Assembly (NCBI GenBank): GCA_028292825.1
Contig: JAQGLO010000046.1
Location: 1-37,444 of the forward strand
DNA from: Alphaproteobacteria bacterium
Lineage (GTDB): Bacteria > Pseudomonadota > Alphaproteobacteria > Micropepsales > Micropepsaceae
Reading direction: 5' to 3'
Length of the DNA: 37,444 bases
Positions 291-36,904 of this stretch are shown here, one piece after another. The first letter of the stretch is position 1. Each line of letters starts with the position of its first letter. Position numbers and translations under genes: made by a program. Below the pieces are notes generated by a model. That model was given only the letters and a program-made list of their open reading frames with translations. It did not search any database and had not been told where the DNA came from.

Positions 291-1214
291 TTAAAAATGC
301 CGGTAGCCGGGCTTGGACACTGCGGCTTCGCTGCCGTTTATCATCAGGCTCACGCCCTCGCCCGCCGCGACATGGCCGATAGGAGTGAAAGGCCCGGTCA
401 GTCCCGGCGCGGCGGTGAAAGCGATCTGGTAGTCGTCACCCGCCGCCACGGCGCGCAGCAGTACGGCGTCGCCCCAGAGCGCGCGCAGCGGATCCGACAG
501 CGGCACATGCGCGCCGTCTACCACAATGCGAAGTTTCGACGCGGACGCGATATGGCCGAGATCGGCAATCAGTCCGTCGGAGATATCGACGCTTGCGCTG
601 GCGATGTCGCGCAGCGGCGCCGCGAACGTCACCGGCGGCTGCGGCACGCGATAGCGGGCAATCAGAAAATCGCGCTGTTCTTCCGTCAACGCATGTTTCT
701 CGCGGCGGAAGATCGCAAGGCCGCCGCCGGAATCGCCGATGGTGCCGGTGACATAGACATGATCGCCGGCGCGCGCACCGCTGCGCCGGATCATCCCGCC
801 CTGCGGCACATATCCAAAGGCGGTGACGGAAATCGCCAGCGCGCCATCAGTGGCGCTGGTGTCGCCGCCCAGAAGCGTGATGCCGAAACGCTGCTGGTCT
901 TCGGCCAGGCCCTGCGCGAAACCCGCCAGCCAGTCGGGCGTCACCGTATGGGGCAATGACAGGTTCAGCAGGTAATGCGCCGGCTCGGCCCCCTTGGCGG
1001 CGAGGTCGGACAGGTTCACGCGCAGCGCCTTTTGCGCGATGGTGGCGGCAGGATCGAAGCCGAAGAAATCCACGCCCTCGGCGATGGCGTCGGTGGTGAC
1101 CACCAGGTCGTGACCGGCGCGCTGCGGCAGGATCGCAGCATCATCGGTCAGGCCGAGCCCACCCGCGCCCGCCAGCGGCGCGAAATAGCGCGCGATGATG
1201 CCAAATTCATCCAT
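291..1214 (-). CDS. thiL: Thiamine-monophosphate kinase ThiL
   Basis: ThiL phosphorylates thiamine monophosphate with ATP to give thiamine diphosphate, the last step of cofactor synthesis in the cytoplasm. The 307-residue product has the usual ThiL/PurM-like order: an N-terminal MDEFGIIARYF start, the Mg/ATP loop GLTDDAAIL, the central LGGDTSATDG motif, and the C-terminal ISDGLIADLGHIA motif that binds substrate. Length fits the family. A TTG two codons upstream (1220) would also work, but ATG at 1214 gives the MDEFG start usual in the family, so I chose it. It follows nusB by 24 bases, the common nusB-thiL pairing. Confidence 0.95.
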   Translation of the reverse strand: MDEFGIIARYFAPLAGAGGLGLTDDAAILPQRAGHDLVVTTDAIAEGVDFFGFDPAATIAQKALRVNLSDLAAKGAEPAHYLLNLSLPHTVTPDWLAGFAQGLAEDQQRFGITLLGGDTSATDGALAISVTAFGYVPQGGMIRRSGARAGDHVYVTGTIGDSGGGLAIFRREKHALTEEQRDFLIARYRVPQPPVTFAAPLRDIASASVDISDGLIADLGHIASASKLRIVVDGAHVPLSDPLRALWGDAVLLRAVAAGDDYQIAFTAAPGLTGPFTPIGHVAAGEGVSLMINGSEAAVSKPGYRHF

Positions 1215-1238
1215 GCCCAAACCCTGAACCGAAGAAGA

Positions 1239-1724
1239 TCAGAAGTCGAGTTCGCCTTCAGGTGTCGACAGGCCGAATTCAGCCGCGCGCTTGCGCTTGG
1301 CGATGGTGTCCAGCGCGGCATTGACGAAACCGGGCTCGTCGGCGCCGAAGAAGGCCCCGGCCACGGCCACATACTCGTCGATCACGACCCTGGCCGGCAC
1401 ATCGCGCCGCGCCACCAGCTCAAACACGCCGGCACGCAGAATGGCGCGCAGGATGGAATCGACCCGCTCCAGCTTCCACTTTTCCGAAAGCGCGGCGACG
1501 ATGGCGCGGTCGATCTCTTCCTGGTGCTGCGGCACGCCATTGAGAATGGCGTTGAAGAACTCCTGGTCGGGCATCACCGGCAGTTCGGAGAAGCGATGTT
1601 CGGCGAATTCCTGCGCGATTTCCTCGGCGCCGCTGCCGTTCATCTCCATCTGATAGAGCGCCTGCACCGCGCCCAGGCGGGCGGCGTGGCGGCTGTCGGA
1701 TTTGCTTGTCTCTTCGGCGCTCAT
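1239..1724 (-). CDS. nusB: Transcription antitermination factor NusB
   Basis: NusB binds boxA RNA with NusE/S10 and supports antitermination of rRNA operons. The 161-residue protein shows the all-helical NusB pattern: SRHAARLGAVQALYQMEM at the N-terminus (arginine-rich RNA-binding helix), a middle helix bundle, and the family signature VDSILRAILRAGVFEL followed by VPARVVIDEYVAVAGAFFGADEPGFVNAALD. The ATG at 1724 overlaps the TGA of ribH in an ATGA arrangement, so translation of nusB is probably coupled to ribH. thiL follows after 24 bases. Length is normal for alphaproteobacteria. Confidence 0.96.
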   Translation of the reverse strand: MSAEETSKSDSRHAARLGAVQALYQMEMNGSGAEEIAQEFAEHRFSELPVMPDQEFFNAILNGVPQHQEEIDRAIVAALSEKWKLERVDSILRAILRAGVFELVARRDVPARVVIDEYVAVAGAFFGADEPGFVNAALDTIAKRKRAAEFGLSTPEGELDF

Positions 1725-2140
1725 CGCCCATATCCCAGGCGATCACCGAAGGTGACCAGCGCCAGGCAGGCTCGCGCCGCATCGCCGCCCACATCCTGGG
1801 TGACGGCCAGGTCGCGGGCGGCGCCCTCGTCCGTGGCCAGCACGATGCCGTTGCCCAGCGCGATGCCGGCCCCGCCCAGGCTCACCAGACCACGCATGGC
1901 CTCGGCATAGAAGATGCCGGCGACCTGTACATGGCCGGCGACGCTGCCGAGCGCGACATAGCCGTCAAAGGGCCGGGGCGAGCGCGATGCGATGGCGATG
2001 GCTGCCGGGATTTCCAGCACCCCGGGCACGGACATGCGCTCGAACTGCGCGCCGCCTTTTTCCAGCGCGGCCGTGGCGCCATCCACCAGCGCGTCGGCAA
2101 CATCGGGATGGTACCGCGCTTCAACGATCAGGATGTTCAC
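1721..2140 (-). CDS. ribH: 6,7-dimethyl-8-ribityllumazine synthase-like protein, divergent active site
   Basis: RibH condenses 5-amino-6-ribitylaminouracil with 3,4-dihydroxy-2-butanone 4-phosphate to give lumazine, the precursor of riboflavin. The N-terminal half is clearly RibH (ILIVEARYHPDVADALVDGA, then SVPGVLEIPAAIAIA at 37-51). The normally invariant catalytic segment RGETxHF is replaced: residues 62-78 read VALGSVAGHVQVAGIFY, one residue shorter than expected and without the catalytic His and the RGET loop. The other frames do not restore the motif, so a simple frameshift is unlikely. At 139 residues it is slightly short. It starts with GTG five bases after nrdR, with an AAGG about 12 bases upstream. 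Fold assignment is firm; enzymatic activity is doubtful. Confidence 0.85.
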   Translation of the reverse strand: MNILIVEARYHPDVADALVDGATAALEKGGAQFERMSVPGVLEIPAAIAIASRSPRPFDGYVALGSVAGHVQVAGIFYAEAMRGLVSLGGAGIALGNGIVLATDEGAARDLAVTQDVGGDAARACLALVTFGDRLGYGR

Positions 2141-2145
2141 GCGCG

Positions 2146-2610
2146 CTAGACCTTATCCTCATCGCCTTCGAGATCGCCGATCAGCTTTTCGAAGTCGCGG
2201 GTCTCGCGGAAATTCTTGTAGACCGAGGCAAAGCGCACATAGGCCACCTTGTCCAGGCTGGCCAGCGCCTGCATCACCAGCTCGCCGATCACATTTGCGG
2301 GAATCTCGTTCTCGCCCATGGATTCCAGGCGGCGCACGATGCCGGTGACGGTGCGTTCCACCCGCTCGCGTTCCACCGGGCGCTTGCGCAAGGCGTGATT
2401 GATGGAACGCTCCAGCTTGTCGCGGTCGAAACTTTCGCGCCGGCCATTCTTCTTGACCACCACCAGTTCGCGCAGTTGCACGCGCTCGAAGGTGGTGAAG
2501 CGGCCGCCACATTCTGGGCAATGGCGGCGGCGGCGGATGGCCGAATTGTCCTCGGAAGGACGGCTGTCCTTCACCTGGCTGTCTTCATGGGCGCAAAAGG
2601 GGCAACGCAT
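2146..2610 (-). CDS. nrdR: Transcriptional repressor NrdR
   Basis: NrdR senses ATP/dATP and represses ribonucleotide reductase genes by binding NrdR boxes. The 154-residue protein has the N-terminal zinc ribbon with Cys3, Cys6, Cys31 and Cys34 (CPFC and CPEC pairs), the RFTTFERV motif just after it, and an ATP-cone from about residue 47 ([18 protein letters not shown]) to about 140. Length matches the family. It starts with ATG eight bases after the glyA stop behind a good AGGAG site, so it is almost certainly in the glyA transcript. No ribonucleotide reductase gene lies in the window. Confidence 0.97.
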
Positions 2611-2618
2611 GGCGGCTC

Positions 2619-3917
2619 CTAACGGTAAATCGGAAAGCGGGCGCAGAGTTCGCCCACGCGGCGCGCCACGCTCTGTTCGACCTGGGCGTCGCCTTCTTCA
2701 TTCCTGGCCACCGCATCGACCACTTCCACGATCAGCTTGCCGATCTCGCGGAATTCCGCGATGCCAAACCCGCGGGTGGTGCCGGCGGGCGAACCCAGGC
2801 GGATGCCAGAGGTGATCACGGCCTTTTCGGTGTCGAACGGCACCGCATTCTTGTTGCAGGTGATGCCGGCGCGGTCGAGCGCATGCTCGGTGGGACGGCC
2901 CTTGGCGCCCTTGGGACGCAGGTCCACCAGCATCAGATGGGTGTCGGTGCCGCCGGTGACGATGTCGAGCCCGCTGGCCTTCAGCACTTCGGCCAGGGCC
3001 TTGGCATTCTCCACCACATTCTTCGCATAGGTCTTGAATTCCGGCTTCAGCGCTTCGCCGAACGCCACCGCCTTGGCGGCGATGACATGCATCAGCGGAC
3101 CGCCCTGCAGGCCCGGGAAGACGGCGGAGTTGAATTTCTTGCCGAGGTCCGCGTCGTTGGACAGGATCATGCCGCCGCGCGGGCCGCGCAGGGTCTTGTG
3201 GGTGGTGGTGGTCACCACATGGGCATGCGGCACCGGGCTTGGATGCGCACCGCCCGCAACAAGCCCGGCGAAGTGCGCCATGTCCACCATGAAATAGGCG
3301 CCGATCTCGTCCGCGATGGCGCGGAAAGCGGCGAAGTCGATCTGGCGGGCATAGGCCGAGCCGCCGGCCAGGATCAGCTTGGGCTTGTGCGCGCGGGCCA
3401 GCGCCGCGACCTGGTCCATGTCGATGCGCTGGTCGTCTTTCTTGACCGTGTAGGGGATCGGCTTGAACCATTTGCCGGAATAGTTGGCGGGATGGCCGTG
3501 GGTGAGATGGCCGCCGGCTGCCAGATCAAGACCCATGAAGGTATCGCCCGGCTGCAGCAGGGCATAGAAGACTTCCTGGTTGGCATTGGCGCCGGAATGG
3601 GGCTGCACGTTGGCATAGCTGGCGCCGAACAGCTGGCAGGCGCGATCGATGGCAAGCTGCTCGGTGACGTCGACATACTCGCAGCCGCCGTAATAGCGCT
3701 TGCCGGGATAACCTTCGGCATACTTGTTGGTCAGCACCGAACCCTGGGCTTCCAGCACGGCCTTGGAGACGATGTTCTCCGACGCGATCAGCTCGATCTT
3801 TTCGCGCTGGCGGTTCAGCTCGTCCTTGATGGTGGCGAAGACGGCCGGATCGGCGGCTTCCAGGCCCTGGGTGAAAAAGGTGTCGGTCGAATTGGAAGGA
3901 TTGGCGGCGGCCGACAT
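2619..3917 (-). CDS. glyA: Serine hydroxymethyltransferase GlyA
   Basis: GlyA is the PLP enzyme that interconverts serine plus tetrahydrofolate with glycine plus 5,10-methylene-THF, the main source of one-carbon units. The 432-residue protein contains the expected landmarks: [20 protein letters not shown] near the N-terminus, [15 protein letters not shown], the SGANANQEV substrate loop, [12 protein letters not shown], and the PLP-lysine motif [16 protein letters not shown]. The C-terminal [11 protein letters not shown] motif is also intact. The start at 3917 has an AAGGA site at good spacing. It is the first gene of the minus-strand run glyA-nrdR-ribH-nusB-thiL and is divergent from the MucR-like gene. 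Confidence 0.98.
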
Positions 3918-16302: not shown

Positions 16303-17331
16303 TTACATGCCCGAACCCTGGATGCCCTTCCACGAGGCCTCGATGGCCTTGATGGCGTTTTCCGGCAGCGGGACATAGTCCAGGCCCAGCGCCAGGCTGT
16401 CGCCCTTTTCGAAGCTCCACTTGAAGAACTTCAGGGTGTCCGCGGTGGCGGTCTGGTCCGGCGGATTCTTGTAGACCAGGATGTAGGTGGTGGCGGTGAT
16501 CGGCCAGGAAGCCGCGCCGGGCTGGTCCACCAGGATGATGTAGAAGTTCTGGCTGGCAGCACCGGCCCAGTCGGCGCCGGCAGCAGCGGCGCGGAACGCC
16601 TCCACGGTCGGCTCGGTGGTCTTGCCTTCCTTGTTGATCATCTTCACATGCGCCAGGTGGTTCTGCTTGGCATAGGCATATTCGACATAGCCGATCGAAC
16701 CGCTGATCTGCGCCACGTTGCCGGCAACGCCTTCATTGCCCTTGGCGCCGATGCCGCTCGGCCAGTCGATGGCGGTATCCGCACCGACATCCGACTTCCA
16801 GGACGGTGACACGCGCGACAGATAGGTCGCGAAGATGAAGGTGGTGCCCGAACCGTCGGAACGATGCACCACGGTGATCGCCTTGCTGGGCAGCGCGACG
16901 CCGGGGTTCAGCTTCTTGATTTCCGGCGAGTCCCAGCGGGCAACCTTGCCCTGGTAGATGGCGGCCAAGGTGGCGCCATCCAGGGTGAGCTGGCCCGGCT
17001 TGATGCCCGGGACATTGATCACGGGCACGACGCCGCCGATCACGGTGGGGAACTGGGTGAGGCCGGCGGCCGCCAGTTCCTTGGGGGTGAGCGGCTTGTC
17101 GGTGGCGCCGAAGGCGACCGTCTTGGCCTTGATCTGGGCAATACCGCCGCCCGAACCGATCGACTGGTAGTTCAGGCTGGTGCCGGACTGGCCCTTATAG
17201 ACCGCCGCCCACTTGGCGTAGATCGGGAAGGGAAAGCTGGCGCCGGCGCCGGTGATTTCCGCGGCAAAGGCGGTGGTGGCCATGGCGAGGCCGACAGCCG
17301 CGCCCAGAAGGGCCTTGTAAGTGCGTTTCAT
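16303..17331 (-). CDS. pstS: Phosphate ABC transporter substrate-binding protein PstS
   Basis: PstS is the periplasmic phosphate-binding protein that feeds the PstCAB importer. The 342-residue protein has a signal peptide (MKRTYKALLG to AFAAE, cleavage near residue 23), the PstS start ITGAGASFPFPIYAKWAA, the phosphate-contact loop SIGSGGGIAQIKAKTVAFGATDKPL and the VVHRSDGSGTTFIFATYL motif, with GSIGYVEYAYA further on. These all match the family. It follows the porin by 27 bases with a GGAG site, and a terminator lies just downstream. pstC, pstA, pstB and phoU are not in this window. Expression is probably under PhoB through the array at 19091-19130. Confidence 0.96.
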   Translation of the reverse strand: MKRTYKALLGAAVGLAMATTAFAAEITGAGASFPFPIYAKWAAVYKGQSGTSLNYQSIGSGGGIAQIKAKTVAFGATDKPLTPKELAAAGLTQFPTVIGGVVPVINVPGIKPGQLTLDGATLAAIYQGKVARWDSPEIKKLNPGVALPSKAITVVHRSDGSGTTFIFATYLSRVSPSWKSDVGADTAIDWPSGIGAKGNEGVAGNVAQISGSIGYVEYAYAKQNHLAHVKMINKEGKTTEPTVEAFRAAAAGADWAGAASQNFYIILVDQPGAASWPITATTYILVYKNPPDQTATADTLKFFKWSFEKGDSLALGLDYVPLPENAIKAIEASWKGIQGSGM

Positions 17332-17358
17332 GTGTCTGTTCTCCAGTATTGGGGATGA

Positions 17359-19029
17359 TTAGTTGGCGTATTGGAAGCGCAGGCCGAGGACATTGAAGTC
17401 CTGGCTGTCGCGATCCGGGAGCGCCGCAGTGCCCTTCGAAACGCTGACGATATTGTCCTGCAGCATGATGCGGATATTGCGATTCAGATACCAGTTCACG
17501 CCAAGCGCCGCGATGCGCTCTTCGCCGCCCAGGACACCGGCCAGCTGCGTGCCGGCGATCGCCAGTTGGCCGCTGTTCCAGTTCAGGTTGGTGTCGGTGT
17601 AGCGGGCCACCAGTTCCCAGGCGCCCCAGGAGCCGCCAGAGAGCGAGAAGGGACGCGACGGGATCGGACCCTGGAAGCCGCCCACTTCGTTGTTCAGGGC
17701 GCTGGCCGAATAGGCCTTGGTTTCGCCCGTCAGGATCCAGGAGCCTTCCACCGCCCAGCCGTAGAACTTGGGATGGTCGGCAACATTGGTGGAGGTGGTG
17801 CAGCCGGTGGCCGCGCCGATGGCGCCGCACTGGCGGTCGATCGAGAACTGGGCGTATTCGCCGCCGATGTAGAAGTTCTCGAAATTGCCTTCCAGGTCGA
17901 CCGCCCACATGTCGGCGGTCTTGGCATTGATGCCGCCGGTGGCGATCAGGCGGGTGCCGTCAACGCGGATTTCCGGGCGGTCGCGCAGGTTGAGCGACTG
18001 GCTGCCGCCGTCCGCATTGCCGTTGGAACCGCTGTACAGCACCTTGCCGAAGCTGCCACCGATCTGGAAGTTGGAGATGCCATCACTCCAGAAACGGTCG
18101 GTGACGCGGCCCAGGACCTGAGTGTTTTCGTCACCATTGCCGGGTGCGCCGGCCGTGGCCACGCTGCCATGGTTCTGCGCGCTGCCGGTCTTGCCGCCCG
18201 AGAAGGTGGCGGTGGCGGTGACATTGTCGCCGGCCCAGAAAGTGTCGGTCTTGGCCCAGCCAACTTCCACGCCGCGGCGCGAGTCGCCGGCGCCGAAGGT
18301 GTCGGCGGCGATGTTTTCAAAGTCCGGGCGTTCCATGAACATCAGGTTCGCCGAAGATGTCGTGCCTTCCATCATGAAGGCCGGCTCCAGGACGCCGACA
18401 TTGATATGCACGTTCGGGATGCCGGTATAGCTGATCACAGCCTTGTTCAGCAGGGGATCGCCTTCACCGGCATTGGGCACGCCGCTGGCGCCGAAGCTGC
18501 CGCCGTCGCTGCCGCCGGCGTTGAAGCGCAGTTCGTAGGAGAAGTCGCTATAGGCCTTGCCTTCAATGCCGAAATAGGCGCGGCGCACGACCGAGCCGGA
18601 GCTCAGGTCGCTGGGACCGGCGAAGCCGGCGGGGTGGGTGGAGTCCTGCGAATAGCCGGCAAAGTCGGCCTGGACGCGGGCGCGGATGGCGAGGGTGAAA
18701 CGGCCATCGCCCGAGGCGAAGGTGGGACGGCCATTGTCAAACGCCCAGACGGCGGAATTGTAGCCCTGTTCCAGGGTCGAAAGACGGGTGCGGTCGGCGG
18801 TGGCACGGTCCGTGGCGGAGGTCTGGGCATCTTCCAGCGCCTGGATGCGCGCCGCGAGTTCGGCATTGCTGATGCTGCCGCCGGACGGCGTGTTCAGCTG
18901 CGCCACGACCAGGTTGGGACGCTCGACATTGCTGTCCTTGGAGTCGTTATTGGTTTCGGCGGCCTGCGCGCTGGCGGCGGCGGCCATGGCGATAACGGCC
19001 ACGCTCGCCATCAGTGTCCCGATTTTCAT
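17359..19029 (-). CDS. OprO/OprP-like phosphate-selective outer-membrane porin
   Basis: A 556-residue outer-membrane protein. It has a signal peptide (MKIGTLMASVAVIAMAAAAS, cleavage near AQA-AE), then a short coiled-coil-like region (about 53-90, NAELAARIQALEDAQTSATD), then a beta-barrel rich in alternating aromatic and polar residues, with SGSVVRRAYFGIEGKAYSDFSYELRFN typical of OprO/P porins. The barrel ends in FNVLGLRFQYAN; a terminal Asn rather than the usual Phe is a small oddity. ATG 19029 has a GAGGG site; a longer upstream frame lacks homology. With pstS behind it and Pho-box repeats in front, it is probably a phosphate or polyphosphate porin. Confidence 0.9.
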   Translation of the reverse strand: MKIGTLMASVAVIAMAAAASAQAAETNNDSKDSNVERPNLVVAQLNTPSGGSISNAELAARIQALEDAQTSATDRATADRTRLSTLEQGYNSAVWAFDNGRPTFASGDGRFTLAIRARVQADFAGYSQDSTHPAGFAGPSDLSSGSVVRRAYFGIEGKAYSDFSYELRFNAGGSDGGSFGASGVPNAGEGDPLLNKAVISYTGIPNVHINVGVLEPAFMMEGTTSSANLMFMERPDFENIAADTFGAGDSRRGVEVGWAKTDTFWAGDNVTATATFSGGKTGSAQNHGSVATAGAPGNGDENTQVLGRVTDRFWSDGISNFQIGGSFGKVLYSGSNGNADGGSQSLNLRDRPEIRVDGTRLIATGGINAKTADMWAVDLEGNFENFYIGGEYAQFSIDRQCGAIGAATGCTTSTNVADHPKFYGWAVEGSWILTGETKAYSASALNNEVGGFQGPIPSRPFSLSGGSWGAWELVARYTDTNLNWNSGQLAIAGTQLAGVLGGEERIAALGVNWYLNRNIRIMLQDNIVSVSKGTAALPDRDSQDFNVLGLRFQYAN

Positions 19030-19090
19030 TACCCTCAGTCCCTCTCGTGTATCCACGCAATCTTGCGCGCGGTCGCTTTCGCAGTGGGGG

Positions 19091-33532: not shown

Positions 33533-34711
33533 ATGGCGCACGGACAGCATTTCCTGCAGATCCCGGGACCCAGCCCGGTACCGGAACGCATCCAGCGCGC
33601 CATCGACCGCCAGGTGATCGATCATCGCGGTCCCGAATTCCAGGCGCTGGGCCATGACGTCCTGGCCGGCATCCGCGAGGTGTTCGGCACCAGCGGCCCG
33701 GTGATCATCTATCCCGCCTCCGGCACCGGCGCGTGGGAAGCCGCCATCGTCAATACGCTGTCGCCGGGCGACAAGGTTTTGATGGCCGAGACCGGCCAGT
33801 TCGCCACGCTGTGGCAGAAGCTGGCATCGCGCTTTGGCATCATCGTCGATTTCATCCCTGGCGACTGGCGCCATGGCGTTAATGCGGCCGCCATCGCCGC
33901 CAAGCTGGCCGATGACAAGGCGCACGCCATCAAGGCCGTCATGGTGGTGCACAACGAAACCTCCACCGGATGCCTGTCGGACATCGCGGCGGTGAAGACG
34001 GCCATGGGATCGCATCCCGCGCTGTTGATGGTGGACACGATCTCATCGCTGGGCTCGACGCCGGTGCGGCACGAGGCATGGGGTGCGGACGTCACCGTAT
34101 CCGGCTCGCAGAAGGGCCTGATGCTGCCACCGGGGCTGAGCTTCACCGCCATATCAGACAAGGCCATTGCCGCGTCAAAGACCAACACCCTGCCCCGTTC
34201 CTATTGGGACTGGAGCGAGATGCTGACATTCAACGCCAAGGGCTTCTTTCCCTACACGCCTGCCAGCACCCTGCTCTATGGCCTGAAGGAAGCGCTGGCC
34301 ATGCTGCGCGAGGAAGGGCTGGAGAATGTCTTTGCCCGTCACCAGCGCCTGGCCGCCGCCTGCCGCGCCGCCGTGCGCGGCTGGGGCCTGGAAATCCTGT
34401 GCCAGGATCCGAAGGTCTATTCGCCGATCCTGACCGGCGTGGTGCTGCCGGCCGGCCACGACGCGGACAATTTCCGCAAGATCGCGCTGGAACAGTTCAA
34501 CATTTCCTATGGCGCGGGCCTGGGCAAGGTGGCGGGCAAGGTGTTCCGCATCGGCCATCTGGGCGACTGCAACGAACTGACACTGATGGCGGCCTTGTGC
34601 GCCACCGAAATGACCTTGCAGCTGGCCGGCGTGCCGCACAAGGCGGGCGGCGTTGCCGCCGCCATGTCCAGCTTCACGGACGAAAACAAGAAACTGCGCC
34701 TGTCCGCCTGA
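33533..34711 (+). CDS. PLP-dependent serine/alanine-glyoxylate-type aminotransferase
   Basis: A 392-residue class V aminotransferase. It starts QIPGPSPVPERI (substrate-binding start of the AGT/SgaA family), with HRGPEFQ, IIYPASGTGAWEAAI, VVHNETSTG at 138-146, VDTISSLGSTP at 167-177 and the PLP lysine Lys194 in GSQKGLMLPPGL. The C-terminal FRIGHLGDCNELT motif is intact. It would transfer amino groups to glyoxylate or a related oxoacid. It has an AGGGA site before ATG 33533. The dehydrogenase diverges from it with 83 bases between, and the carrier gene follows after 49 bases. Confidence 0.93.
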   Translation: MAHGQHFLQIPGPSPVPERIQRAIDRQVIDHRGPEFQALGHDVLAGIREVFGTSGPVIIYPASGTGAWEAAIVNTLSPGDKVLMAETGQFATLWQKLASRFGIIVDFIPGDWRHGVNAAAIAAKLADDKAHAIKAVMVVHNETSTGCLSDIAAVKTAMGSHPALLMVDTISSLGSTPVRHEAWGADVTVSGSQKGLMLPPGLSFTAISDKAIAASKTNTLPRSYWDWSEMLTFNAKGFFPYTPASTLLYGLKEALAMLREEGLENVFARHQRLAAACRAAVRGWGLEILCQDPKVYSPILTGVVLPAGHDADNFRKIALEQFNISYGAGLGKVAGKVFRIGHLGDCNELTLMAALCATEMTLQLAGVPHKAGGVAAAMSSFTDENKKLRLSA

Positions 34712-34760
34712 ACGGGCAGCGTAGATAAAAAGTATCGGGACGAAACAGTCGGGGGTTGGC

Positions 34761-36005
34761 ATGAAACGCTTGCGCGTGCCGCACATCATTCTGGCGCTGC
34801 TGTGCCTGATGTACTTCATCACCTATATCGACCGGGTCAACATTTCCACCGCCGCCAGCGCCATCCAGGACGAGTTTGGTTTCTCCAAGACCCAGCTGGG
34901 CCTGATCTTCTCCGCCTTCGCCTATCCCTATCTGGTGTTCCAGGTGATCGGCGGCTGGGTGGGCGACAAGTTCGGGGCGCGCAAGACGCTGTTCTGGTGC
35001 GGCCTGGTCTGGGCCGCGGCCACCATGCTGACCGGATTCGCCGGCGGACTGGTGTCGCTGTTCGCCACAAGGCTGCTGGTGGGACTGGGTGAAGGCGCCA
35101 CCTTCCCCACCGCCACGCGCGCCATGCAGAACTGGACCTCGCCCGGCCGCCGCGGCTTCGCACAGGGCATCACCCATGCCTTTGCGCGGCTGGGCAATGC
35201 CGTGACGCCGCCGCTGATCGCGCTCTTGATGGCGGCCTTCAGCTGGCGCGGCGCCTTCTGGCTGCTGGGCGGCATCAGCCTGGTGTGGGTGCTGGTGTGG
35301 GTCTTCTATTTTCGCAATTACCCCAAGGACCATCCCGGCATCACCCAGGCGGACCTGGACGCGCTGCCGCCGCATATCCTGGGCGAGCGTCCCAAGGCGC
35401 CTTGGCGACCGTTGCTGAAGCGGATGTGGCCGGTGACGCTGACCTATTTCTGCTATGGCTGGACCTTGTGGCTGTATCTCAACTGGCTGCCGCTGTTCTT
35501 CAAGACCAACTATCACATGGAGATTTCCAAATCGGCGATCTTCGCCTCCGGCGTATTCTTCGCCGGCGTGGTGGGCGACACCCTGGGCGGCGTGCTGTCG
35601 GACGGCATCCTCAAACGCACCGGCAATGTGCGGCTGGCGCGGCTGGGCGTGACGGTGCTGGGTTTCGGCGGCGCCTTTGCGTCGCTGCTCCCCATCCTGT
35701 TCGTGCATGACGTGACGGTGGTGGCGCTGTGCCTGTCGGGCGGCTTCTTCTTCGCCGAGCTGGTGATCGGGCCGATGTGGGCGGTGCCCATGGATATCGC
35801 GCCGCGCTATGCCGGCACCGCCGCGGGCCTGATGAATACCGGCTCGGCCTTCGCCGCCATCGCCTCGCCGCTGGTGGCGGGTTACGTCATCGACGTGACC
35901 GGAAACTGGTACCTGCCCTTCATCATGTCCATGTGCCTGTTGGGCGTGGGCGCGTTCACCGCCTTCCTGATGCATCCCGAAAAGCCTTTTGAGGAGACTG
36001 CCTGA
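34761..36005 (+). CDS. ACS-family MFS transporter of organic anions
   Basis: A 414-residue, 12-helix major facilitator carrier. The start HIILALLCLMYFITYIDRVNIS followed by GFSKTQLGLIFSAFAYPYLVFQVIGGWVGDKFG (in pieces: FSKTQLGLIFSAFAYPY) is the anion:cation symporter signature, with motif A as GGWVGDKFGARKTL. Helices 7-12 show GGVLSDGILKRTGN. ACS carriers bring in sugar acids, hexuronates, phthalate or other carboxylates; the substrate is not known here. It follows the aminotransferase by 49 bases, and its stop overlaps the cupin start by one base (TGATG). Confidence 0.9.
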   Translation: MKRLRVPHIILALLCLMYFITYIDRVNISTAASAIQDEFGFSKTQLGLIFSAFAYPYLVFQVIGGWVGDKFGARKTLFWCGLVWAAATMLTGFAGGLVSLFATRLLVGLGEGATFPTATRAMQNWTSPGRRGFAQGITHAFARLGNAVTPPLIALLMAAFSWRGAFWLLGGISLVWVLVWVFYFRNYPKDHPGITQADLDALPPHILGERPKAPWRPLLKRMWPVTLTYFCYGWTLWLYLNWLPLFFKTNYHMEISKSAIFASGVFFAGVVGDTLGGVLSDGILKRTGNVRLARLGVTVLGFGGAFASLLPILFVHDVTVVALCLSGGFFFAELVIGPMWAVPMDIAPRYAGTAAGLMNTGSAFAAIASPLVAGYVIDVTGNWYLPFIMSMCLLGVGAFTAFLMHPEKPFEETA

Positions 36006-36904
36006 TGAAAAACCTTGCCCTGACCGCCGCCCTGTTGCTGACCGCCACCGGTGCGCAGGCGCAACTGGCTTCGAAGATCACCCATTACGATGTCAGCAAG
36101 ACCGCCAATCTCAAGGCGGTGCATGACGGCGCCGGGACGATGAATTTCGGGCCGCTGATGACCGACAAGAGCATGTCGACCAACCTCCTGTTCCTGCATC
36201 GCGGCGTGCTGCATCCCCATTCCGGCATCGGCCAGCATTTCCACAACCACTGCGAAGAGATGTTCGTGATCTTTGACGACGAGGCGGAATTCACTGTCAA
36301 TGGCCGCACCTCCACCCTGAAGGGCACGGTCGGCGCGCCGGACCGCATGGGCTCGTCGCACGCCATCTACAATGCCACCGACCATGACGTGGAGTGGATG
36401 AACATCAATGTCGGCACCTCCAAGGTCTATGACGCCTTCAACCTGGGCGACGACCGGGTGGGTGCGCCGCAGGACAGGGTGCCGCAATTCGTCACCATGC
36501 ATCTGGACAAGGCACTGCTGAAACCCGGCGCCACCCCCGGCGTGATGCGCCGCCGCGCCCTCAGCCCCAGCGTGTTCTACACCGCCTGGTCCTATGTCGA
36601 TCACGAGCTGGTCGCGCCGGGAGCAATCGTGCCACAGACCGCTACGCCGGAGATGAGCGAGGCCTATTACGTCATCTCCGGCGACGGCAGCGTGACGGTG
36701 AATGGCGAGACGGTGGTGATCAAGAAAGGCGACGCCATCCCGGTCGAACCCGGCCAGGCCAAAAGCTTCAAGGGCGGCAGCGCCCCGCTGGAACTGATGA
36801 TCATCGGCGTAGCAAAAGACATGGCCGCCAAGAACGCCTTCGCCGCCGATGCCGCCAACGAAACCCCGGAACGGCTGCTGGCGGTGCTGAACAAGCCGCG
36901 TTAG
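36005..36904 (+). CDS. Exported double-cupin protein
   Basis: A 299-residue protein with a signal peptide (MKNLALTAALLLTATGAQAQ, cleavage near AQA-QL). The first cupin (about 55-140) holds the metal pattern QHFHNHCEEMFVIFDDEAEFTVNG; the second (about 195-275) has SEAYYVISGDGSVTVNGETVVIKKGDAIPV. Metal-binding His/Glu are present mainly in the first repeat. The catalytic role (dioxygenase, decarboxylase, isomerase or binding only) cannot be told. It is the last gene of an aminotransferase-carrier-cupin unit and may act on the carrier's substrate in the periplasm. The gap 36905-36991 shows only a weak hairpin. Confidence 0.85.
   Translation: MKNLALTAALLLTATGAQAQLASKITHYDVSKTANLKAVHDGAGTMNFGPLMTDKSMSTNLLFLHRGVLHPHSGIGQHFHNHCEEMFVIFDDEAEFTVNGRTSTLKGTVGAPDRMGSSHAIYNATDHDVEWMNINVGTSKVYDAFNLGDDRVGAPQDRVPQFVTMHLDKALLKPGATPGVMRRRALSPSVFYTAWSYVDHELVAPGAIVPQTATPEMSEAYYVISGDGSVTVNGETVVIKKGDAIPVEPGQAKSFKGGSAPLELMIIGVAKDMAAKNAFAADAANETPERLLAVLNKPR

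What the first reader, a model, noticed from the sequence alone, without database searches (positions are those of the whole stretch)
1721..2140. RibH without its catalytic RGETxHF motif, in a cluster that has lost ribD, ribE and ribBA
Residues 62-78 read VALGSVAGHVQVAGIFY where lumazine synthases have a catalytic His and an RGET loop, one residue shorter. The neighbours that normally lie between nrdR and ribH in alphaproteobacteria are missing here. Either another true RibH exists elsewhere and this copy has a new role (scaffold, altered substrate), or riboflavin is made in another way. The flanking nusB and nrdR are normal, so the change is specific.
Basis: partly seen in the sequence, partly recalled or inferred. 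Interest (0 to 1): 0.6.

Follow-up and report, generated by a model that had tools for sequence, protein, structure and literature searches.

The report
Dead vitamin B2 enzyme, still kept
A group of bacteria that seems to have lost the ability to make vitamin B2 keeps one enzyme of that pathway in a form that has lost the residues for its reaction, and natural selection still protects it, which suggests that it has become something else, perhaps a vitamin B2 holder.

Summary
The gene (minus strand, 2140-1721) is a lumazine synthase (RibH) homologue without RGETxHF; nrdR abuts it where ribD-ribE-ribBA lie in relatives. It is not a base error. Of 69 genomes of the genus, 30 lack riboflavin synthase and DHBP synthase; 22 of these have a full-length RibH like the window's, 2 a cut one, 6 no hit. 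In all 22 the phosphate-binding Arg, the active-site Lys and RG[ED]T are gone (all three kept in 25 of 25 aligned pathway-bearing RibH). No second RibH was found. Riboflavin is probably imported; RibF is kept. Yet selection is strong (omega 0.118; nusB of the same genomes 0.100). The ribityl/ring half of the pocket is better conserved, and Tyr is His in 21 of 22, matching a His that contacts riboflavin in a published docking. G038, of another family, has a similar RibH between nrdR and nusB beside a complete rib operon elsewhere, so auxotrophy may not be needed. Best reading: a non-catalytic RibH kept for another job, most likely flavin binding. Loss of catalytic residues and selection are well supported; flavin binding is inference. 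No binding, activity or growth was tested.

The parts
1721..2140 (-). RibH relic: lumazine synthase homologue, 139 aa, GTG start, predicted non-catalytic
1919..1945 (-). codons of residues 66-74 (SVAGHVQVA), where RibH has the loop (C)VIRGETYHF; one codon shorter
   Evidence: coordinates by arithmetic from the start codon
1808..1810 (-). Leu111, in place of the phosphate-binding Arg (B. subtilis Arg127; Mtb Arg128)
1790..1792 (-). Val117, in place of the active-site Lys (Mtb Lys138)
2108..2110 (-). His11, in place of Tyr in pathway-bearing relatives; same column as Mtb RibH His28
2141..2145 (-). nrdR-ribH junction, 5 bp; site where ribD-ribE-ribBA lie in relatives
1721..1724 (-). 4-bp ATGA overlap of ribH stop and nusB start (19 of 22 relic and 11 of 12 pathway-bearing genomes measured)
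2146..2610 (-). nrdR (flank)
1239..1724 (-). nusB (flank)
291..1220 (-). AIR-synthase-related protein (Pfam AIRS); called thiL from operon position, recalled
2619..3917 (-). glyA (serine hydroxymethyltransferase, flank)

Best explanation
In one clade of an alphaproteobacterial genus the riboflavin pathway (ribD, ribE, ribBA) was lost, most simply once, and the cells must take up riboflavin and convert it with RibF. The remaining ribH was not discarded. It lost the site that binds the phosphate of DHBP (Arg, Lys and the RGET loop, mostly replaced by small or hydrophobic residues) but kept the fold and most of the half of the pocket that holds the ribityl chain and pyrimidine ring. I propose that the protein, probably still an oligomer, binds riboflavin or another flavin and acts as a buffer, store or carrier. 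Shown: pathway genes not found, motif lost clade-wide, purifying selection, fold predicted as RibH. Inferred: loss of activity, auxotrophy, oligomer, flavin binding and its purpose.
For: PF00677 and PF00926 both absent in 30 of 69 genus genomes, including each of the 22 with a full relic RibH; RibF present in 11 of 11 relic genomes tested (18 of 19 in all). R128 and K138 (Mtb numbering): kept in 25 of 25 pathway-bearing RibH and 0 of 22 relics; RG[ED]T 25 of 25 vs 0 of 22; H89 25 of 25 vs 8 of 22. PMC2935281 (passages): the Arg and the loop Thr bind phosphate, are called strictly conserved among known enzymes, and an uncharged residue at the Arg gives inactive enzyme. omega 0.118 over 21 relics; log-likelihood -5547.9 vs -6010.4 at omega 1. 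Ring/ribityl columns more conserved than average in relics (P 0.013), phosphate columns more variable (P 0.003); in pathway-bearing RibH both sets are conserved. Tyr to His 21 of 22 vs 0 of 25; PMC11133327 (passages) docks riboflavin on Mtb RibH at His28, Ala59, Glu61, Asn114 and others, and measures Kd 86 nM. Structure model pLDDT 95.7; nearest solved folds are RibH1 (TM 0.89-0.90), with riboflavin-bound S. pombe lumazine synthase also listed. Relics form one clade (21 of 21 in the tree). A RibH of another family, G038, at the same locus also lacks RGET, the Arg and the Lys and has His at position 28.
Against: No binding, activity or growth data. Lys138, lost in all relics, is itself listed as a riboflavin contact in PMC11133327; Ala59 is Val or Ile in 17 of 22 relics, Asn114 is changed in 5 of 22, and Ile83 is kept in 4 of 22 (window: Ala68). 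PMC2935281 also cites older work by which changes at the Arg, Lys, Thr and His have only weak effects in B. subtilis, so inactivity is expected, not certain. Six of the 30 pathway-less genomes show no RibH hit, two of them 92-93% complete (G096, G100), so the gene may be dispensable. G038 has a complete rib operon elsewhere, so a job specific to riboflavin scavengers is not needed to explain such a protein. I split the pocket into ring and phosphate sides after seeing the alignment, and the entropy test ignores relatedness. No riboflavin importer was identified. The 4-bp overlap with nusB gives a second possible reason to keep the frame.
Confidence: 0.45

Rival explanations
1. New role without flavin: a structural, regulatory or enzymatic function on another ligand or partner, perhaps tied to the neighbours NusB or NrdR, using the oligomeric RibH scaffold.
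For: Strong selection; retained fold; the loop differs between subclades (GPSHIA, ADTRVA, RTGSFHF). In G038 a similar RibH stays between nrdR and nusB although a complete rib operon with its own RGSTPHF RibH lies elsewhere, which points to the locus rather than to vitamin need.
Against: Five pocket positions on the ribityl/ring side are invariant in 22 of 22, and the new His matches a riboflavin contact; the phosphate/catalytic side is what changed.
Confidence: 0.33
2. Translational spacer: ribH is kept because nusB is translationally coupled to it through the ATGA overlap, and the protein itself does nothing.
For: The 4-bp overlap is kept in 19 of 22 relic and 11 of 12 pathway-bearing genomes.
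Against: A spacer should drift in amino acid sequence, but omega is 0.118, close to nusB itself, and conservation is patterned on one half of the pocket. By my start assignment G030 has a 10-bp gap, and in G038 ribH and nusB are 30 bp apart, yet both keep the protein.
Confidence: 0.09
3. Still a working lumazine synthase with an altered active site, fed by unknown enzymes or by imported precursors.
For: Eight of 22 relics keep His-Phe at the catalytic position. PMC2935281 (passages) cites work on B. subtilis RibH in which changes at Arg, Lys, Thr and His had only a weak influence. G043 lacks the Lys (Phe there) within a complete rib cluster.
Against: No DHBP synthase and no riboflavin synthase in any of the 22 relic genomes; the phosphate Arg is uncharged in 22 of 22, which the same paper calls inactive.
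Confidence: 0.07
4. A decaying pseudogene that happens to be open.
For: The rest of the pathway is gone; six of 30 pathway-less genomes show no hit.
Against: Full-length open frame in 22 genomes; omega 0.118; recent pairs also low (G001-G017 0.114, G006-G103 0.112).
Confidence: 0.03

Closest known systems
RibH1, type-I lumazine synthase of alphaproteobacteria (PDB 2f59, 2o6h)
   Same: Same family and predicted fold; 41-42% identity in the structural match.
   Different: The relic lacks RGET, the phosphate Arg and the Lys, and sits in genomes without riboflavin synthase and DHBP synthase.
Riboflavin-binding lumazine synthases (M. tuberculosis 2C92, Kd 86 nM in PMC11133327; S. pombe 1kyv, titled as riboflavin-bound)
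   Same: Parts of the ring/ribityl side of the pocket; aromatic residue at the stacking position in 21 of 22 relics; 21 of 22 relics have the His found at position 28 of the Mtb enzyme.
   Different: The Mtb enzyme keeps Arg128 and Lys138; binding by the relic is not shown.
RibH at the nrdR-nusB locus of G038 (another family of the class; L049 6443-6910 minus)
   Same: Adjacent to nrdR and nusB without ribD-ribE-ribBA; no RGET; Leu at the Arg position, Phe at the Lys position, His at position 28.
   Different: One sequence only, no selection test; the genome has a complete rib operon on another contig.
Brucella RibH1 and RibH2 (PMC2828483 passages)
   Same: Both are cited there as poor lumazine synthases in vitro.
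   Different: Both are active in vivo in that paper, in a genome that makes riboflavin.
Dodecin-type flavin storage proteins (recalled, from no call)
   Same: Proposed kind of job only: an oligomer that buffers flavin.
   Different: Believed unrelated; no homology was tested.

Membership tests
Lumazine synthase (RibH) | Homology to PF00885 over full length | tested here: met
   2.3e-19, profile 2-136 of 139
Lumazine synthase (RibH) | Fold | tested here: met
   Predicted, pLDDT 95.7; best PDB hits RibH1
Lumazine synthase (RibH) | NCBIfam equivalog cut-off | tested here: not met
   93.8 of 174 bits; 30.2 of 84.6 bits
Lumazine synthase (RibH) | Phosphate-binding Arg and loop Thr | tested here: not met
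   Leu111 and Val71 in the window; Arg in 0 of 22 relics
Lumazine synthase (RibH) | His in RGETxHF | tested here: not met
   Val73 in the window; His in 8 of 22 relics, RG[ED]T in 0 of 22
Lumazine synthase (RibH) | Pathway that supplies and uses its substrates | tested here: not met
   No PF00677, PF00926 or PF01872 match in G000; GTP cyclohydrolase II not searched
Lumazine synthase (RibH) | Enzyme activity; pentamer or capsid | not testable with these tools
   Needs purified protein
Archaeal-type riboflavin synthase (related to RibH; recalled) | Match to such a family | tested here: inconclusive
   All three NCBIfam hits at E 0.1 are RibH models; whether an archaeal-type model is in the library was not checked
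Flavin-binding protein (functional class) | Binds riboflavin, FMN or FAD | not testable with these tools
   Only pocket conservation was measured

The most novel reading that the evidence does not exclude
A lumazine synthase that became a dedicated flavin-holding protein: the charged phosphate pocket was exchanged for small or hydrophobic residues that could accept the benzenoid ring of the flavin, much of the ribityl side was kept, and a riboflavin-contacting His was gained. It happened when a lineage stopped making riboflavin and perhaps a second time at the same locus in another family (G038). It would be a pathway pseudoenzyme kept by selection across a whole clade.
Probability: 0.38. Interest if true: 0.77.

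Novelty: new variant of a known kind. Interest (0 to 1): 0.63.

Why it matters
A lost pathway's genes are usually expected to go (general knowledge). Here the last gene of the cluster is kept by selection in 22 genomes after losing the residues for its reaction, with pathway-bearing sister lineages in the same genus for comparison and a possible parallel case in another family. That makes a natural experiment on how an enzyme becomes a binding protein and on how riboflavin scavengers handle a scarce vitamin. It also warns that a RibH hit is not evidence of riboflavin synthesis: these genes score above Pfam's cut-off and could be counted as pathway genes in metagenome reconstructions.

Tried and rejected
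Rejected: a sequencing error (22 genomes share the change); a second RibH in the held genome; a riboflavin importer in the gap between nusB and thiL seen in some relic genomes (G105 has a cupin protein; the one other protein there that I scanned, from G035, had no Pfam match).

Not settled: an FMN riboswitch was found in 1 of 37 genomes (G032), but no more than 64 candidates were scored per genome, out of up to 165, so absence is not firm. Relic-like RibH outside the genus: G043 and G056, weak scorers that I read, keep KGET..H or RGET..H, but G038's second copy does not. Weak scorers G140, G169, G211 and G229 were not read. That loss of the Lys alone is not diagnostic follows from G043.

Weak points of method: the 3-gene tree with one outgroup gave 59 for the relic clade; the 4-gene iqtree run was stopped by its time limit before support values; FastTree on the same alignment gave SH-like 1.0. 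YN00 failed for 3 of 16 ribH pairs, and some pairs are saturated at silent sites. The omega set used 21 of 22 relics (G086 left out). Papers: searches showed no listing that by title or abstract start describes a RibH kept in riboflavin auxotrophs; listings were capped and only open-licence PMC papers are held, so this is no proof of absence. Papers seen as passages only: PMC12871164, PMC2828483, PMC9529111, PMC11133327, PMC4418817, PMC2935281.

Full report
The gene. Pfam finds DMRL_synthase only, 2.3e-19; NCBI's RibH models match below their cut-offs. The order glyA, nrdR, ribH, nusB, thiL (an AIRS-family protein) has 5 bp between nrdR and ribH and a 4-bp overlap of ribH with nusB.

The genome. 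The window is contig C211 of a 2.94 Mb assembly in 219 contigs, 82% complete. It has one PF00885 match, this gene, and no match to riboflavin synthase (PF00677), DHBP synthase (PF00926) or RibD_C (PF01872). RibF (PF06574) is present.

Relatives. Sixty-nine genomes of the genus and 27 of other genera of the family were searched. In the genus, 30 of 69 lack both PF00677 and PF00926. Of these 30, 22 have a full-length RibH of the window's type that I read; G084 has one interrupted by N; G008 has only a 3' end at a contig end; and six have no hit: G016, G025, G036, G092, G096, G100. In G016 the contig begins six codons before a stop that overlaps the nusB start, and in G025 and G036 only the longer kind of NusB-domain protein was found, so these three say nothing. 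G092 is 62% complete. G096 and G100 are 92-93% complete and may be true losses; I could not search them further. The other 39 of 69 have DHBP synthase; I read the RibH of 28 of them and all 28 have RG[ED]T, ten were not read, and G028 has a broken cluster. Nine RibH of other genera of the family all have RGET, the Arg and the Lys, with Tyr at position 28. Weak RibD_C matches occur in some relic genomes (G001, G013, G017, G030; E 1e-8 to 1e-23) on contigs other than that of ribH; the cluster RibD of pathway-bearing relatives scores below 1e-40, G028 apart. PF01872 was not searched in G061-G119.

What changed. On an alignment of 22 relics and 25 pathway-bearing RibH with Mtb RibH (states), Arg128 is Leu, Met or Gln in 22 of 22 relics, Lys138 is Val, Ala, Leu or Ile in 22 of 22, and RG[ED]T is absent in 22 of 22; all three are kept in 25 of 25. 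His89 is kept in 8 of 22. PMC2935281 (passages) states that the Arg and the Thr of the loop hold phosphate and are strictly conserved, and that an uncharged residue at the Arg gives inactive enzyme; it also cites older B. subtilis work in which changes at these and neighbouring residues had only a weak influence. Loss of activity is therefore expected, not shown.

What stayed. Gly58, the Leu at 60, Glu61, Gly113 and Gly115 (as in pathway-bearing relatives, Mtb numbering) are unchanged in 22 of 22 relics; Asn114 in 17 of 22. Mean entropy of 14 ring/ribityl columns is 0.60 against 1.06 for all columns (P 0.013); that of 8 phosphate/catalytic columns is 1.87 (P higher 0.003; one of nine was dropped for gaps). 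In pathway-bearing RibH both sets are conserved. I drew the two sets from the pocket list of PMC11133327 after seeing the alignment, and the test does not correct for relatedness. Tyr at the position of Mtb His28 is His in 21 of 22 relics and in 0 of 25 others. In PMC11133327 (passages) riboflavin docks on His28, Ala59, Glu61, Val81, Ile83, Asn114 and Lys138 of Mtb RibH, with a measured Kd of 86 nM. Against the flavin reading, Lys138 is lost, Ala59 is Val or Ile in 17 of 22, and Ile83 is kept in 4 of 22.

Selection. Codon models (GY+F3X4, last value printed) give omega 0.118 for 21 relic ribH, 0.100 for nusB and 0.036 for nrdR of the same genomes, and 0.095, 0.087 and 0.040 for 10 pathway-bearing genomes. 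With topology and kappa held, the relic log-likelihood falls from -5547.9 to -6010.4 at omega 1. Thirteen of 16 relic pairs could be computed by YN00, 0.035 to 0.199. A pseudogene or a mere spacer would not behave so.

History. Relics form one clade in trees of the flanking genes: FastTree on glyA, nrdR, nusB and thiL with nine outgroups, SH-like 1.0 for 21 relics against the rest; the 3-gene tree with one outgroup gave 59. One loss of ribD-ribE-ribBA followed by long retention of ribH is simplest. In a draw of 192 class genomes, 44 have no RibH match at all; whether these make riboflavin was not tested.

A possible parallel. G038, of another family of the class, has two RibH. One lies between nrdR and nusB with no rib gene between (28 and 30 bp gaps); it lacks RGET, has Leu for the Arg, Phe for the Lys and His at position 28, and scores below the RibH cut-offs. 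The other (RGSTPHF, Arg and Lys kept, Asn at 28) lies in a ribD-ribE-ribBA-ribH run on another contig of like G+C (0.377 and 0.370; gene names there are my reading of the sequences). It is one sequence and its history is unknown, but it suggests that the RibH left at this locus can be kept without its pathway genes, even where riboflavin is made.

Structure. The predicted fold is RibH (pLDDT 95.7); best solved matches are RibH1 chains (TM 0.89-0.90), and an S. pombe lumazine synthase entry with riboflavin is among the first ten.

Reading. A non-catalytic RibH kept for another job, most likely flavin binding. Auxotrophy is inferred from missing genes, GTP cyclohydrolase II was not searched, and no importer was found. 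The genus is unnamed here; contigs of relic genomes have the lengths of contigs in records titled uncultured Alphaproteobacteria bacterium Kiruna3_bin-1165 (G001), Rhizobiales bacterium dw_265 (G015), Rhizobium sp. Q54 MH-09jul19-258 (G035) and two Alphaproteobacteria MAGs (G024, G104).

Noticed in passing
G028, contig C2 about 754889-757726 (L036): A pathway-bearing relative has its rib cluster in pieces (stops in ribH; ribBA and ribE split), with a full-length second DHBP synthase on another contig; either assembly errors or an independent decay.
   Followed up: partly
L049 6443-6910 minus and L212 3230-6672 minus (G038): Another family's genome has a motif-less RibH between nrdR and nusB and a complete ribD-ribE-ribBA-ribH run elsewhere: a possible independent parallel to the window.
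   Followed up: partly
Between nusB and thiL in G014, G015, G017, G030, G035, G101 (L033, L034, L035, L037, L038, L174), G105 (L170) and G008 (L055): Insertions of about 1.3-2.8 kb; most hold a protein with a KKRDFL- or KKREFL-type start (the one scanned had no Pfam match), and G105 a cupin protein. The window has only 18 bp there.
   Followed up: partly
window 33533-36904 +: A class-V aminotransferase, an MFS transporter and a Cupin_2 protein in a row.
   Followed up: no
window 16303-19056 -: A phosphate-selective porin (17359-19056) next to a PBP-like binding protein (16303-17331).
   Followed up: no
G021 L043, G005 L044, G027 L045: Some pathway-bearing relatives carry a second, distant RibH-like protein; two have Trp-His at the stacking position, and the one in G027 lacks the RGET motif.
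   Followed up: no
G032, contig C93 15351-16230 (L056): The only FMN riboswitch found among 37 genus genomes lies beside a second DHBP synthase gene.
   Followed up: no
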